This document shows, in pieces, positions 1 to 5,043 of a DNA stretch of 64,000 nucleotides. Positions within the stretch are counted from its first letter, which is position 1, and every line of letters begins with the position of its first letter. This DNA comes from Synechococcus sp. RedBA-s (lineage in GTDB: Bacteria; Cyanobacteriota; Cyanobacteriia; PCC-6307; Cyanobiaceae): NCBI RefSeq assembly GCF_024345495.1, contig NZ_JAGQBF010000007.1, positions 38,155-102,154 on the forward strand. The letters run 5' to 3'. Made by a program: the position numbers and the translations under genes. The notes under the pieces were generated by a model. The model saw nothing but the letters and a program-made list of their open reading frames with translations, was not told the DNA's origin and did no database searches.

Positions 1-405
1 CATACTGATTTCTATGCCCGTTTCGCCAGCCCCGGCATCGTGCTCGCAGGCTATGACCCGGATCCCGAATCCTATGACCACGAGATTACGAAGCGGCATC
101 TGGAGATTCTCCGGGCTGCCGCAGATGCAGGCGGCCGCAAACTGGAGGTCATCGTTCTCGAAGGGCCGACGACCATCCGCGAGGCCTACGCAACAGACGA
201 GTTCGCGGCTGGCTACATCGGCTTTTATGTGTGCAATGCGGCCGTCATCATGCAGGAGTTCGGCGACGCGCAAGCCGACCTTGCCGCCAAGAAAGCCTTG
301 GAGAAGGCGTTCCCCGACCGGGTAATTGAACAGGTTGCCATTGACGGCATCGCTGCGGGTGGAGGTAGCATTCACTGTGCTACGCAACAAGAGCCGGCGG
401 CCTAA
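1..405 (+). CDS. Agmatine deiminase family protein, 3' end only
   Basis: The reading frame is open from base 1, so the 5' part lies outside the window; 134 C-terminal residues are visible. The segment around YICNAAVIM-like text (seen as GFYVCNAAVIMQEFGD), the PDR segment and the final GGGSIHC motif match the C-terminal catalytic region of agmatine deiminase / peptidylarginine-deiminase-like guanidino-hydrolases, where this last cysteine is the nucleophile. These enzymes convert agmatine to N-carbamoylputrescine in the cytosol. The stop codon lies inside the start of an attC-like site, which is usual for integron cassette genes. The ATG at position 40 is internal, not the start. Confidence 0.8.
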   Translation, partial: HTDFYARFASPGIVLAGYDPDPESYDHEITKRHLEILRAAADAGGRKLEVIVLEGPTTIREAYATDEFAAGYIGFYVCNAAVIMQEFGDAQADLAAKKALEKAFPDRVIEQVAIDGIAAGGGSIHCATQQEPAA

Positions 406-459
406 CAAGAGCATGCAGCTGACTGCGCCTCACGCCGCAGCTGATGCTGGGCGTTGGAT
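400..459 (+). repeat. attC-like integron recombination site 1 (60 bp)
   Basis: The site opens with GCCTAAC (400-406), fitting the R'' consensus RYYYAAC, and closes with GTTGGAT (453-459), fitting R' GTTRRRY. Between them an 11-bp imperfect inverted repeat pairs AGCATGCAGCTG (410-421) with CAGCTGATGCT (438-448), leaving one unpaired G at 415. That is the extrahelical base expected of folded attC. The length equals the classical 59-base element, and the upstream gene ends inside it. Consensus and fold are seen directly; recombination activity is inferred. Confidence 0.85.
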
Positions 460-472
460 TGACGGAGAAGCT

Positions 473-1243
473 GTGGGATCGTGGAGTCCTGGCGAGTACA
501 TGCGCTTCGGCGACGAGCGAACCCGACCGTCGGTCGATCTCGCATCGCGCATCGCTGTCGAGCGTCCTGCGACCGTCATCGATCTGGGGTGCGGACCGGG
601 GAACAGCACGCGGGTGCTGCGGCAACGCTGGCCCGAGGCGCATGTGGTCGGGCTGGACAGCTCGCCTGAGATGATCGATGCCGCTCGCGCTGACGAGCCG
701 TTCGAAGAGTGGATCGTCTCGGGCATCGAGGACTGGGCCCCCTCGGCCGGCTTCGACGTCGTGTTCTCCAACGCGGCTCTCCAGTGGTTGCCTGATCACT
801 GCGCACTCGTCGAACGACTGTTCCGGGCCGTCGCGCCCGGCGGTGCGCTCGGCTTCCAGATCCCCAGCGCTGACTTCGCCGCCGTCCGCCACCTCATTCA
901 CGGCATCGCGCTCGACGGTCCGTGGACACCTCGGATGTCGGGGCCGCTCGGCGAGCTCACGATGGAGCCGCCGGGCCTGTACTACGACTGCCTCAGCCCG
1001 CACGCCCGTTCCGTCGACATCTGGGAGACGGAGTATTTCCACGTCATGGATTCGTCTGCGGCGATCGTGGACTGGATCGCGAGCACAGGCCTACGTCCGT
1101 TCCTGGCTGCTCTCGAGTCGGAGGATGAAACGCGGATGTTCGTGTCGCGTCTGAGCGAGATGGTGCGCCAGACGTATCCGCCGCAGAAGGACGGACGCGT
1201 GCTGTTTCCCTTCAAGCGGACGTTCGTGGTGGCATACCGCTAG
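473..1243 (+). CDS. SAM-dependent methyltransferase, Tam-like (cassette gene)
   Basis: A 256-aa class I methyltransferase. Motif I is VIDLGCGPGNST, followed by an acidic loop VVGLDSSPEMI and the FSNAALQWLPDH segment, all typical of trans-aconitate 2-methyltransferase (about 250 aa). These enzymes use S-adenosylmethionine; the substrate here is not proven. I chose the GTG at 473 because GGAGAAG lies six bases upstream and the following SWSPGEYMRFGDERTRP matches the family N-terminus. The open frame back to 326 runs through an attC site and is not coding. The gene nearly fills one cassette between attC-like sites 1 and 2. Confidence 0.82.
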   Translation: MGSWSPGEYMRFGDERTRPSVDLASRIAVERPATVIDLGCGPGNSTRVLRQRWPEAHVVGLDSSPEMIDAARADEPFEEWIVSGIEDWAPSAGFDVVFSNAALQWLPDHCALVERLFRAVAPGGALGFQIPSADFAAVRHLIHGIALDGPWTPRMSGPLGELTMEPPGLYYDCLSPHARSVDIWETEYFHVMDSSAAIVDWIASTGLRPFLAALESEDETRMFVSRLSEMVRQTYPPQKDGRVLFPFKRTFVVAYR

Positions 1244-1255
1244 CGCTTGCCCGCT

Positions 1256-1354
1256 GTCCAACAAGCGTATCAACCTGAAGAATCGGCGTGTGAGGTATTC
1301 TCGGGTCGCAACGCTGCGGGGCCGGATTTGCAGATTATACGGAACACGTTATAC
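1256..1354 (+). repeat. attC-like integron recombination site 2 (about 99 bp)
   Basis: R'' is GTCCAAC (1256-1262) and the best R' is GTTATAC (1348-1354), which has one mismatch to GTTRRRY. GCGTATCAACCTGAAGAATCGG after R'' pairs imperfectly, with bulges, with a segment at about 1322-1342 before R'. GTCCAAC also pairs 6 of 7 with GTTGGAT, the core bounding the other end of this cassette, as expected if the two joined in a circular cassette. The weak R' match makes this site less certain than site 1. Confidence 0.68.
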
Positions 1355-1423
1355 GGATCCAATCCAGACATCTGTGATTTTCTCTGATATACTTCCATCC
1401 CATGGTGACTCGGGGATTTATCC

Positions 1424-1822
1424 ATGGGCGCACGCGACATCATTGCTCATCCGGTGCATCTGGGTCTTGGCGCAACTGCCGAAGTTGAACCATTGTTCAC
1501 CGGTGCAATAAGTTGGTACGAGGAATACATAAGCCGGCATGCAGATGATGGCGCTGAGGGGCGTCTCGTGAGCATGCACAAATTCAACGTTTCGTGGGAT
1601 TCGTGGGAAATGCACCCGCATGGAAGCGAAGTCATTCTATGCACGTCCGGATCAATGATCCTCCATCAAGAGGATCCTGATGGTTCTCGTTCGGCCGTAA
1701 CATTGGGTCCTGGCCAGTACGCAGTCAATACTCCTGGCACCTGGCACACGGCTGACGTGGAGCACGAGGCATCAGCAGTGTTCATTACCGCAGGATTGGG
1801 CACTCAGCACCGTCTGCGATAA
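1424..1822 (+). CDS. Small cupin-domain protein (cassette gene)
   Basis: A 132-aa single-domain cupin. The region EMHPHGSEVILCTSGSM gives the metal-binding HxH...E motif, and PGQYAVNTPGTWHTAD gives the second cupin motif with its histidine. The predicted product is a soluble beta-barrel, probably metal-binding; enzymatic and non-enzymatic members cannot be told apart here. It starts with ATG 70 bases after attC-like site 2 and ends about 60 bases before site 3, so it is the only gene of its cassette. No operon partner is visible. Confidence 0.72.
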   Translation: MGARDIIAHPVHLGLGATAEVEPLFTGAISWYEEYISRHADDGAEGRLVSMHKFNVSWDSWEMHPHGSEVILCTSGSMILHQEDPDGSRSAVTLGPGQYAVNTPGTWHTADVEHEASAVFITAGLGTQHRLR

Positions 1823-1883
1823 GAAGGGTGTTTCACACGTGCGAGTCTTTCCCCATGGCCTAGTCTGGGGAGACATGAAGTAC

Positions 1884-1972
1884 CGTAAACATCAAGATAC
1901 ATCTGACACGCCCCCTAAAGAGCTTTGATGTCTACCAAGGATTCTTGCGTTCAAGTGATCTTGGCGTTAGGC
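1884..1972 (+). repeat. attC-like integron recombination site 3 (about 89 bp)
   Basis: The downstream core GCGTTAGGC (GTTAGGC at 1966-1972) is a perfect R' box. TCAAGATACATCTGA (1892-1906) pairs with TCAAGTGATCTTGG (1951-1964) with one bulged A at 1899. The AAC at 1888-1890 then pairs with GTT at 1966-1968 after equal two-base spacers on both arms. The remaining bases of the R'' box (CGTAAAC) fit RYYYAAC poorly, so the 5' border is approximate. Confidence 0.65.
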
Positions 1973-2000
1973 GTTGTTAGAGCACTCTTATGAGACACGT

Positions 2001-2243
2001 ATGCGGGTATTCGCTCTGTTACTCCTCTGCACGATGGCCGCTTGCAGTTCCAAGCCTCCGGAATCTACCTACATTATTAATGGCACTAGACTTGAACGCG
2101 TAGCTTCGATCTCAAAACTCCTCAGTAAGACTGCCCCCCTACCAAGTGCGCTGTTAAACGCCCACTTCGTAGAGGAGCAGACGGGCGATGGCCGAGTCGG
2201 TCCCTCGGACTTTGCGCCGCATGCGGACGCCTTCTGGCTATAA
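2001..2243 (+). CDS. Small predicted lipoprotein of unknown function (cassette gene)
   Basis: An 80-aa product with a short signal peptide, MRVFALLLLCTMAACSS, whose MAAC matches a lipobox; the mature protein would start at the cysteine and be lipid-anchored. I do not recognise the rest, which contains a Gly/Asp-rich GDGRVGPSDF stretch. An in-frame ATG at 1974 lies at the attC border; the one at 2001 fits the signal peptide better. Small exported proteins are common cargo of integron cassettes. No attC follows the gene before IS debris begins, so the cassette is probably truncated and the protein may have lost its natural C-terminus. Confidence 0.55.
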   Translation: MRVFALLLLCTMAACSSKPPESTYIINGTRLERVASISKLLSKTAPLPSALLNAHFVEEQTGDGRVGPSDFAPHADAFWL

Positions 2244-2276
2244 AACCATGACTATGATCACCACAATGACTTCAGC

Positions 2277-2858
2277 TCAACACAACTGATGGTCAGTGAT
2301 TCGGATCATCCCGGCGATCAGTCTCATCGCTTTCCCGCAAGACTGACAGAGAACCGGTGATCGTTGCAGGGTGAGTCGTTGCGACGGTATAGGAACCCTG
2401 AGCACAAGCTGCAACAGCTGAACCAGCCGCTTGCAGTTCGCATGCAGAAGGGCATAATCCCGCACGCGCCGAAACCGCCGTGGCAGCACGTGCCTCAGCA
2501 GTCGCCAGAGAAACTCGGCACCTGGCAACGTGCGGATCCGCTCTTGGCCCCGGTTGTCCTTGTAGCGGAAGCTGACCTCCCAGCGCTGTCAGCAATACTA
2601 TCCTTCTCTGTTAGAACGCCCCGATAGAGATAGCGACCCAGATAAACGAGGGCTTGTTCTCCGTGGCCGACATCCGTGCAGTCCACCACCCATTCATTCG
2701 GGAGCTGTTCATCGCAGCGTAAACCCGCCAGTCGTAGGGCCTCAAAGCATTTGGCGCGGAAGACCCTCGCCAGATTGTTGGCCCAGAAGAGAACCTTTCC
2801 CTTCTTCTCGCGCCACTCTCTGCTCTGCTGGTTGATTGCGCCTGCGGGCACAATCAGA
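2277..2858 (-). pseudogene. IS91-family transposase remnant, frameshifted and truncated
   Basis: On the minus strand one frame gives LIVPAGAINQQ, ALVYLGRYLYRGVL and related text, then loses homology near 2580. A second frame resumes with SFRYKDNRGQERIRTLPG, FLWRLLRHVLPRRFRRVRDY, CKRLVQLLQLVLRV and a CQSCG zinc knuckle. These are successive conserved blocks of IS91-type (HUH/Y1) transposases, so one frameshift separates them. The N-terminal half, including the expected HUH motif and catalytic tyrosines, is missing because the IS1595-like element begins at 2859. The gene cannot make an active transposase. Confidence 0.82.
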
Positions 2859-3657: not shown

Positions 3658-5043
3658 TCAGAGCAGATTGGCCGCCAGCTCCGCCAGGGGGGAGCGCTCC
3701 CCTTTGAGCAGGGTGACGTGGCCCGCCAGCCGTTGCCCCTTGAAACGCTCCACCAGCCAGGTGAGGCCGTTGCTGTCGGCATCCACGTAGGGGTTGTCGA
3801 TCTGATACGGATCGCCGGTGAAGACGATCTTGGTGCCCTCTCCCACGCGGGTCACGATCGTTTTCACCTCATGGGGCGTGAGGTTCTGGGCCTCATCCAC
3901 CACCATGTACTGGCGTGGGATCGAGCGGCCACGGATGTAGGTGATCGCCTCCACCTCCAGCAGGCCCATGCCCTTGAGGTCAGACCAGTTGCTGCGGGGA
4001 GCACGGCTGGTGCGCATGCTGCCCTGGGACGCATCCTCGCCACCGAGCAGGTAGTCGAGATTGTCGATGATCGGCTGCATCCAGGGGCCCATCTTCTCGC
4101 CCAGATCACCGGGCAGGAAGCCGATGTCCTTGCCCAGGGGAATCACCGGCCGGGTCACCAGCAGGCGGTCGTAGAGGTGATCGTCGGCCACCTGATGCAG
4201 CCCCGCGGCTAGGGCCAGCAGGGTCTTGCCGGTGCCGGCCTTGCCCACCAGGGTCACCAGGCTGATGGCCGGATCCAGCAGCAGATCCAGGGCGAAAGTC
4301 TGCTCCCGGTTGCGGGAGCTGACGCGGCCGAGCTTGATCCGGCTCGCCTTCTGCAGGGGCCGCAGTCCCCTGGCGGTGCCATCCGCCCGCGCCAGCAGGG
4401 TGTGCTGGGGTTGGCTGGCATCCACCAGGGTCACCCCTTCGTTGGCCAGGAGCGGCGGCTGGGGCGGCAGTCGCGGCGGCAGCTCATCGAGGTCGAGGGA
4501 TCCCTGGTGGTGCAGCTGATCGATCTGCGCCGCCGTGACCACCCACTCGCAGAAGCCCGGGTAGAGGTCGGCGATCGCCACCTTGTCGGTGCTGTAGTCC
4601 TGGGCGATCAGGCCCACCGCATCGGCCTTGATGCGCAGGTTGGTGTCCTTGGTCACCAGCACCACGGGGGGGTGGTTGCCCATCACGTCCTGGAGGCGCT
4701 GCTCCAGCGCCACCGCCAGGATGTTGTTGTCGCCATTGCCGGATTTCAGCTCCGGCGGCAGCTGGGCGAGGGTTTCGTTGCGGCAGAACACCACCTTGAG
4801 CAGGCCGTGGTGCTCCGCATTGATCTCCACCCCCTCGGAGAGATTGCCCTTGCCGCGAAGCTCATCGAGCAGGCGGGAGGTCTGGCGGGCATTGCGGCCC
4901 CTCTCGGAGGAATCACGCTTGAAACGGTCGATCTCCTCGACCACCTCGATCGGGATCACCACCGTGTTGTCTTCGAAGCGGGTGATCGCCAGGGGATCGT
5001 GCAGCAGCACGTTCGTATCGAGAACGAAGGTCTTCTTCATCAC
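3658..5043 (-). CDS. PIN-domain PhoH family ATPase (YlaK-type)
   Basis: A 461-aa fusion protein. Residues 1-150 form a PIN nuclease domain with FVLDTNVLLHDP and spaced acidic residues (VVEEIDRF). Residues about 230-461 are a PhoH P-loop ATPase with GKAGTGKT (Walker A), VVDEAQNLTPHE (Walker B region) and FTGDPYQIDNPY. PhoH2-type PIN-PhoH proteins are reported to be RNA helicase/ribonucleases. The ATG at 5043 is the start; ATG follows in the next codon. This is the first core gene right of the IS element. A large open frame on the opposite strand is only an antisense shadow. Confidence 0.88.
   Translation of the reverse strand: MMKKTFVLDTNVLLHDPLAITRFEDNTVVIPIEVVEEIDRFKRDSSERGRNARQTSRLLDELRGKGNLSEGVEINAEHHGLLKVVFCRNETLAQLPPELKSGNGDNNILAVALEQRLQDVMGNHPPVVLVTKDTNLRIKADAVGLIAQDYSTDKVAIADLYPGFCEWVVTAAQIDQLHHQGSLDLDELPPRLPPQPPLLANEGVTLVDASQPQHTLLARADGTARGLRPLQKASRIKLGRVSSRNREQTFALDLLLDPAISLVTLVGKAGTGKTLLALAAGLHQVADDHLYDRLLVTRPVIPLGKDIGFLPGDLGEKMGPWMQPIIDNLDYLLGGEDASQGSMRTSRAPRSNWSDLKGMGLLEVEAITYIRGRSIPRQYMVVDEAQNLTPHEVKTIVTRVGEGTKIVFTGDPYQIDNPYVDADSNGLTWLVERFKGQRLAGHVTLLKGERSPLAELAANLL

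What the first reader, a model, noticed from the sequence alone, without database searches (positions are those of the whole stretch)
1..2243. Integron-type gene cassette array in a cyanobacterial chromosome
Three attC-like structures (400-459, 1256-1354, 1884-1972) lie just after stop codons of four same-strand, unrelated small genes. Each has a GTTRRRY-type 3' core, a paired inverted repeat and unpaired bases on one arm; site 1 meets every consensus position. This explains the odd gene mix. The cargo (agmatine deiminase, Tam-like methyltransferase, cupin, lipoprotein) is metabolic, not resistance. No IntI is in view, so it may be a CALIN or the distal end of a complete integron. Cassettes in picocyanobacterial genomes are, as far as I know, sparsely described.
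Basis: partly seen in the sequence, partly recalled or inferred. Interest (0 to 1): 0.85.

Follow-up and report, generated by a model that had tools for sequence, protein, structure and literature searches.

The report
Orphaned integron cassette array in picocyanobacterium
This picocyanobacterial chromosome holds a row of gene cassettes downstream of a cut-off stump of an integron integrase gene, at a site where a sister species has the whole integrase; the row was likely built by that integrase and orphaned when the gene was truncated, showing how bacteria outside the clinic likely pick up, keep and strand foreign genes.

Summary
Sites 400-459 and 1885-1972 score genome-wide E 6.5e-8 and 7.6e-8 with an attC covariance model built without them. 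Site 1256-1354 scores weakly, but in four of eight relatives with the cupin gene homology starts at exactly its GTT: a real cassette boundary. A fourth attC lies 0.7 kb upstream of the window.

The integrase is out of view, not absent: 3.9 kb before the window lies an intI stump (about 80 codons, one TAA inside), 89% identical to an intact IntI at the same fumC-phoH locus of a sister species, 70% to this genome's intact IntI on contig 45. The array is most likely the leftover of a truncated chromosomal integron: three whole cassettes, two cut ones, an IS91 remnant and an IS1595 transposase gene behind.

Cassettes obey the circular-closure rule (54 cassettes, 3.59 of 4 variable bases; 2.11 by permutation), which also maps attI 140-183 bp behind intI in 14 of 18 loci. 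The genome holds three IntI paralogues, one intact. IntI is over cut-off in 68 of 400 sampled family genomes. Cyanobacterial integrons are known; this is a new member.

The parts
1..405 (+). 3' part of agmatine deiminase-family gene (PF04371; whole gene C59:37453-38559, 368 aa, twin-arginine-like start by eye); cargo of the cassette that ends at site 1
   Evidence: no close relative in 399 other sampled family genomes (six at 36-38% identity)
400..459 (+). attC site 1: R'' GCCTAAC, R' GTTGGAT (453-459); crossover between G453 and T454
   Evidence: 39.6 bits, E 6.5e-8 genome-wide with R1, which did not contain it
454..1348 (+). whole methyltransferase cassette (from TT of site 1 to G of site 2)
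   Evidence: closure 3 of 4 variable bases: 5' GTTGGAT against own R'' GTCCAAC
473..1243 (+). trans-aconitate 2-methyltransferase-like gene (start GTG read by eye)
   Evidence: NF002463 273 bits, under its cut-off 297; at E<=1e-30 found in 1 of 400 family genomes, this one
1256..1354 (+). attC site 2, degenerate: R'' GTCCAAC, R' GTTATAC (1348-1354)
   Evidence: R1 8.1 bits, R2 16.0 bits; homology to the cupin cassettes of L193, L195, L196, L197 starts exactly at this GTT
1349..1966 (+). whole cupin cassette
   Evidence: same unit in relatives, with an attC at the same distance behind the gene in 6 of 8
1424..1822 (+). small cupin gene
   Evidence: Cupin_2 25.2 bits, just under cut-off 27.2; 9 of 400 family genomes including this one, others 78-90% identical
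1885..1972 (+). attC site 3: R'' GTAAAC (one base shorter than the relatives' GTATAAC), R' GTTAGGC (1966-1972)
   Evidence: 39.3 bits, E 7.6e-8 genome-wide with R1, which did not contain it
1967..2276 (+). cut last cassette: small lipoprotein-like ORF (2001-2243), no attC found behind it
   Evidence: no hit of E<=1 between 1973 and 4000; no Pfam or NCBIfam match
2277..2851 (-). broken IS91-type (Y2) transposase remnant behind the array
   Evidence: PF04986 in two frames, 44.1 and 28.8 bits
2923..3639 (+). IS1595-family transposase gene
   Evidence: NF033547 145 bits over cut-off 75
3658..5043 (-). PhoH-like protein gene, conserved right flank of the integron locus (left flank fumC at C59:32353-33747, outside the window)
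   Evidence: 9 of 9 genus genomes; fumC on the far side in 7 of 7 where the contig reaches

Best explanation
The window begins inside an integron cassette array; 3.9 kb upstream lies an integron integrase gene cut to about its first 80 codons, which likely assembled the array before it was truncated. Likely mechanism: IntI recombined the folded bottom strand of each circular cassette's attC with attI, cutting between G and TT of the R' box, so each new cassette entered between attI and the previous one, on the same strand as intI (in this lineage the array lies 3' of intI). Shown here: the attC folds and their covariation, exact cassette ends by homology, the closure rule, attI cores mapped by that rule behind intact intI genes, an orthologous intact integrase at the same place in a sister species, and the stump. 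Inferred: the recombination itself, the order of events, and that loss of the 3' part of intI and of attI, with IS91 and IS1595 at the other end, orphaned the array. Predicted, untested: the intact IntI paralogue of contig 45 could still move these cassettes in trans, sites 2 and 3 poorly.
For: attC: 92.7% of cells paired in the seeds, covariation 0.545 against 0.167 +/- 0.025 in shuffles; sites 1 and 3 held out of R1 and found. Specificity: of 52 R1 hits (E<=1) in 21 loci with intact intI, 51 lie on the intI strand and 3' of it (8 of the 52 were seeds). Boundaries. Closure: 54 cassettes (neighbours within 3 kb, the 82 hits outside this array plus the four C59 sites) 3.59 of 4, permuted mean 2.11, 0 of 20000 permutations as high, 39 of 54 perfect. 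attI: 14 of 18. Stump; the tree joins it to the two phoH-locus IntI, 100/98. Same locus in G157: intact intI and three attC, one weak; in G076: intI with one TAA, and attC hits.
Against: Site 2 is weak by model. No 5' boundary of the CPBP cassette was found, and 2.2 kb of other DNA lies between stump and first cassette gene. Four of seven genus genomes that span the locus (G102, G035, G182, G142) show neither intI nor an attC hit of E<=1 between fumC and phoH, so gain and loss of the integron there cannot be told apart. The cupin cassette here scores 0 of 4 for closure when site 3 is read from 1884, 3 of 4 when read from the model's start 1885 (sequences); its R'' has an indel. E-values come from a shortened calibration, and the stump fills only 24% of the tree's columns.
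Confidence: 0.92

Rival explanations
1. A CALIN in the narrow sense: the cassettes were dropped here in trans by another IntI (such as that of contig 45), and this locus never had its own working integron.
For: An intact IntI exists elsewhere in the genome, and attC hits lie on several contigs where no integrase match was listed.
Against: The stump is closest to the integrases at the same fumC-phoH place in G157 and G076, and stump and cassettes keep the lineage's same-strand layout.
Confidence: 0.05
2. The array is not orphaned but still active, worked in trans by the intact IntI of contig 45.
For: Contig 45 IntI is full length, 462 bits; the upstream attC and sites 1 and 3 keep the fold.
Against: No attI core was found at the locus (for the R' that the first attC predicts); sites 2 and 3 have altered R boxes; no population data.
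Confidence: 0.25
3. Chance inverted repeats between unrelated genes; no integron.
For: DNA folding of sites 2 and 3 is no better than shuffles.
Against: Held-out model hits, closure rule, exact cassette ends, orthologous integrase.
Confidence: 0.01

Closest known systems
Sedentary chromosomal integrons of Cyanobacteria (taxon-specific attC model in PMC8352920; intI in Cyanobacteria in PMC2426708; passages seen)
   Same: Integron-type IntI, attC arrays, chromosomal; no resistance cargo recognised here.
   Different: This locus has lost most of its integrase and its attI; the genome carries three IntI paralogues at separate loci (whether that holds for the published cases I did not see).
Integrons of Treponema with intI transcribed toward attI (PMC3607928, passages seen), in a tree that also holds a Synechococcus sp. 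IntI
   Same: intI and cassettes on one strand, array behind the 3' end of intI.
   Different: Different host phylum and IntI clade.
CALIN (cluster of attC sites lacking an integrase; IntegronFinder term, definition recalled)
   Same: Several attC sites, no complete integrase nearby.
   Different: A recognisable integrase stump and an orthologous intact locus in a sister species show where it likely came from.

Membership tests
Chromosomal integron (complete) | Integron-type tyrosine recombinase IntI | tested here: not met
   At this locus only about 80 N-terminal codons with one TAA. Met elsewhere in the genome: contig 45, 462 bits over cut-off 265.
Chromosomal integron (complete) | attI beside intI | tested here: not met
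   The R' predicted by the first attC (GTTAGGC) has no exact copy between stump and CPBP gene; attI cores found in 14 of 18 loci with intact intI, 140-183 bp behind it.
Chromosomal integron (complete) | Cassette promoter Pc | not tested
   No promoter analysis was made.
Integron gene cassette array / CALIN | attC sites with paired R and L boxes and extrahelical bases | tested here: met
   Upstream attC, sites 1 and 3; site 2 weak.
Integron gene cassette array / CALIN | Cassette ends at G^TT, and R'' of a cassette complementary to R' at its own 5' end | tested here: met
   at this locus 4 of 4, 3 of 4, and for the cupin cassette 0 or 3 of 4 by register (indel).
Integron gene cassette array / CALIN | No complete integrase nearby | tested here: met
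   TIGR02249 over the whole genome: on contig 59 only the stump is listed.
Integron gene cassette array / CALIN | Recombination of these attC by an IntI | not testable with these tools
   Needs a bench assay.

The most novel reading that the evidence does not exclude
Picocyanobacteria of this group inherit several paralogous integrons from a single IntI acquisition, each at a fixed chromosomal address; species lose different copies, and the surviving IntI keeps working the orphaned arrays in trans, so that one shared cassette pool circulates over several docking sites per genome.
Probability: 0.4. Interest if true: 0.7.

Novelty: new member of a known kind. Interest (0 to 1): 0.5.

Why it matters
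Picocyanobacteria are major primary producers, and as far as I know integrons outside Proteobacteria are little studied. Intact, stop-bearing and truncated integrase copies at one address (fumC-phoH) in one genus make integron decay directly readable; the cupin cassette shows one unit in three genera with unrelated upstream DNA; and the closure rule gives a simple, model-free way to find attI and cassette ends where attC has decayed.

Tried and rejected
Single-strand folding of the three sites was a poor test. A strict R''/R' pairing scan missed most sites, because R'' and R' of one site belong to different cassettes; the covariance model replaced it. A first seed script found nothing through an indexing slip and was corrected (8 seeds, 0 in a shuffled control). 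Rfam at its curated thresholds gave only a tRNA in the window. Chance repeats and a never-integrase CALIN were considered and set aside (see rivals). Searches for prior print on (pico)cyanobacterial integrons; I saw listings only, except passages of PMC2426708, PMC8352920, PMC8618304, PMC3108266 and PMC3607928. I saw there no study of integrons in Cyanobiaceae; most subscription papers are not held. Limits: the genome-wide attC searches scored only 150 of 3531 and 150 of 2587 first-look candidates, so counts are lower bounds; a 39.6-bit R1 hit at C2:30130-30187 is not in the R2 list. Rows dropped: the hit list typed for one search left out L057:15011-15097 (E 0.34, 5' of intI); one search left out single-site loci and some two- to four-site ones, so repeats it with all hits; the tree was not given L096-L103 and kept only rows covering 250 or more query residues, apart from the stump and the contig 19/50 row. 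attI was not sought in the four intact-intI loci without an attC hit.

Full report
What was checked. The window is C59:38155-102154 of a 2.72 Mb, 61-contig genome. Named relatives of its contig 45 integrase are Synechococcus sp. BSA11S (98% identical), Synechococcus sp. 1G10 (87%), Synechococcus sp. CS-1329 (72%), Vulcanococcus limneticus (72%) and Cyanobium (70-71%). So the host is a picocyanobacterium close to Synechococcus sp. BSA11S.

attC sites. Twelve attC seeds (six from this genome outside the three reported sites, six from relatives) share a 25-pair fold, drawn by me, with two extrahelical positions and an unpaired spacer; 92.7% of cells pair, and covariation is 0.545 against 0.167 in shuffles. 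The model R1 finds window 400-459 and 1885-1972 at E 6.5e-8 and 7.6e-8 over the genome. Site 1256-1354 is weak: 8.1 bits with R1, 16.0 bits and E 0.0018 in 4 kb with R2 (R2 was trained on the 64 hits, which include sites 1 and 3 but not 2). With default filters the rest of the window has no hit at E<=1 with R1 or E<=10 with R2. Over the genome R2 lists 29 attC at E<1e-3, a lower bound because only 150 first-look candidates were scored. In 21 loci with intact intI, 51 of 52 R1 hits lie on the intI strand and 3' of intI (8 of the 52 were seeds); 17 of 21 loci have at least one.

Why site 2 is real. The cupin gene between sites 2 and 3 occurs in 9 of 400 family genomes including this one; in G142 it is on another contig than phoH, for the others the place relative to phoH was not tested. 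In L193, L195, L196 and L197 homology to this genome begins exactly at the GTTATAC of site 2, 75-76 bases before the ATG, with 22-25 of 30 bases alike from the GTT on and 7-11 of 30 before it; L194 shows GTTAAAC there in the alignment; L191, L192 and L198 do not show the boundary. Behind the gene an attC lies at the same distance in 6 of 8 relatives, each with R'' GTATAAC, the complement of GTTATAC; here one base is missing. Site 2's odd R' is therefore the cupin cassette's own 5' end.

Closure rule. If cassettes are inserted as circles cut between G and TT, R' at a cassette's 5' end should match R'' of its own attC better than R'' and R' of one site match each other. Over all hits (the C59 array entered once, with its four sites), neighbours within 3 kb give 54 cassettes: 3.59 of 4 variable bases, against 2.28 within sites and 2.11 by permutation; 46 better, 2 worse, 6 equal; 39 perfect; 0 of 20000 permutations as high (without the spacing limit 57 cassettes, 3.53, 48 better, 3 worse). 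At this locus: deiminase cassette 4 of 4, methyltransferase 3 of 4, cupin 0 of 4 read from 1884 or 3 of 4 read from 1885 (sequences). The same rule, applied to the first attC behind intI, finds one exact R' 140-183 bp behind the intI end in 14 of 18 loci, in 11 of the 14 (by eye) next to a GGACCCGCC-like stretch: attI. In the other four the nearest attC is 2.3-3.4 kb away, and the exact R' is absent (two) or far off, at 1562 and 2644 bp (two).

The missing integrase. TIGR02249 over the genome gives an intact IntI on contig 45, a copy split over contigs 19 and 50, a stump on contig 59 before the window, and decayed scraps on contigs 6 and 10. The aligned stump (C59:33959-34234, of which about 80 codons follow the likely start) is 89% identical over 92 residues to the frame of the intact IntI between fumC and phoH in G157, and 70% over 73 to contig 45 IntI. 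PhoH is in 9 of 9 genus genomes; fumC is on the far side in 7 of 7 where the contig reaches. Between them: this genome, stump plus array, about 8.1 kb; G157, intact intI and three attC (one weak); G076, intI with one TAA and two attC hits, one on the other strand; G102, G035, G182 and G142, no intI and no attC hit of E<=1. None of the five cassette genes of this locus was found beside phoH in the eight others.

Paralogues. A tree of 110 IntI puts the picocyanobacterial rows in one clade of 44 (100/100), apart from the filamentous cyanobacteria. Five of the 44 (Vulcanococcus, Cyanobium, SynAce01, an uncultured cyanobacterium) carried no family label, so the tool's label count reads 5 changes, not 1. 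This genome's three copies fall in three subclades, each with genus members: contig 45 with G182, G076, G124, G170 (and G023 of another genus); contigs 19/50 with G102; the stump with the phoH-locus copies of G157 and G076 (100/98; the stump fills 24% of the columns). The contig 19/50 copy is syntenic with G102, has lost its N-terminal part and is broken by an insertion whose ends are inverted repeats with a 9-base duplication.

Distribution and cargo. IntI over cut-off: 68 of 400 family genomes drawn from a larger group, among them 9 of 9 of the genus, and 116 of 358 in the class; weaker matches include other recombinases, as the controls show. All 9 genus genomes have attC at E<=0.001, 7 to 29 each. 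At E<=1e-30 the methyltransferase was found in 1 of 400 family genomes and the deiminase in 7, six of them at 36-38% identity. That suggests outside origin (inferred). Cargo functions are predicted from families only.

Reading. Integron features met and not met are in the membership table. It works like, and likely descends from, a same-strand-layout chromosomal integron; it is not a complete one. Such a layout is described for Treponema (PMC3607928, passages), and PMC8352920 (passages) mentions an inverted IntI sub-clade. Cyanobacterial integrons are in print, so novelty is a new member of a known kind; a set of paralogous integrons per genome in this family I did not see in print (searches).

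Noticed in passing
window 2277-2851 (-): Broken IS91-type Y2 transposase, in two frames, right behind the last cut cassette.
   Followed up: partly
L009:1-654 and L008:8834-9241 (contigs 19 and 50): Second integrase paralogue with N-terminal loss and an insertion with matching inverted-repeat ends and a 9-base duplication; eight attC lie on contig 50.
   Followed up: partly
L178:4593-4684: In G076 an attC-like hit on the strand opposite to intI, where attI would be expected.
   Followed up: no
L005:15236-17473: 2.2 kb between integrase stump and first cassette gene; its 3' part is about 70% like places in six genus genomes, one inside the G157 contig 39 array region.
   Followed up: partly
L186:366-851 and L184:5405-5574 (contigs 6 and 10): Strongly decayed integrase scraps; contig 10 has two attC behind its scrap, and the cassette between them closes perfectly.
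   Followed up: partly
L088:1501-1558 (C2:30130-30187): A short attC-like site (39.6 bits with R1), about as long as site 1; not in the R2 list.
   Followed up: no
family survey: The 68 genomes with an over-cut-off IntI match have 2.1-4.1 Mb; none of the listed 1.6-1.7 Mb genomes is among them (read from the table, not tested).
   Followed up: no
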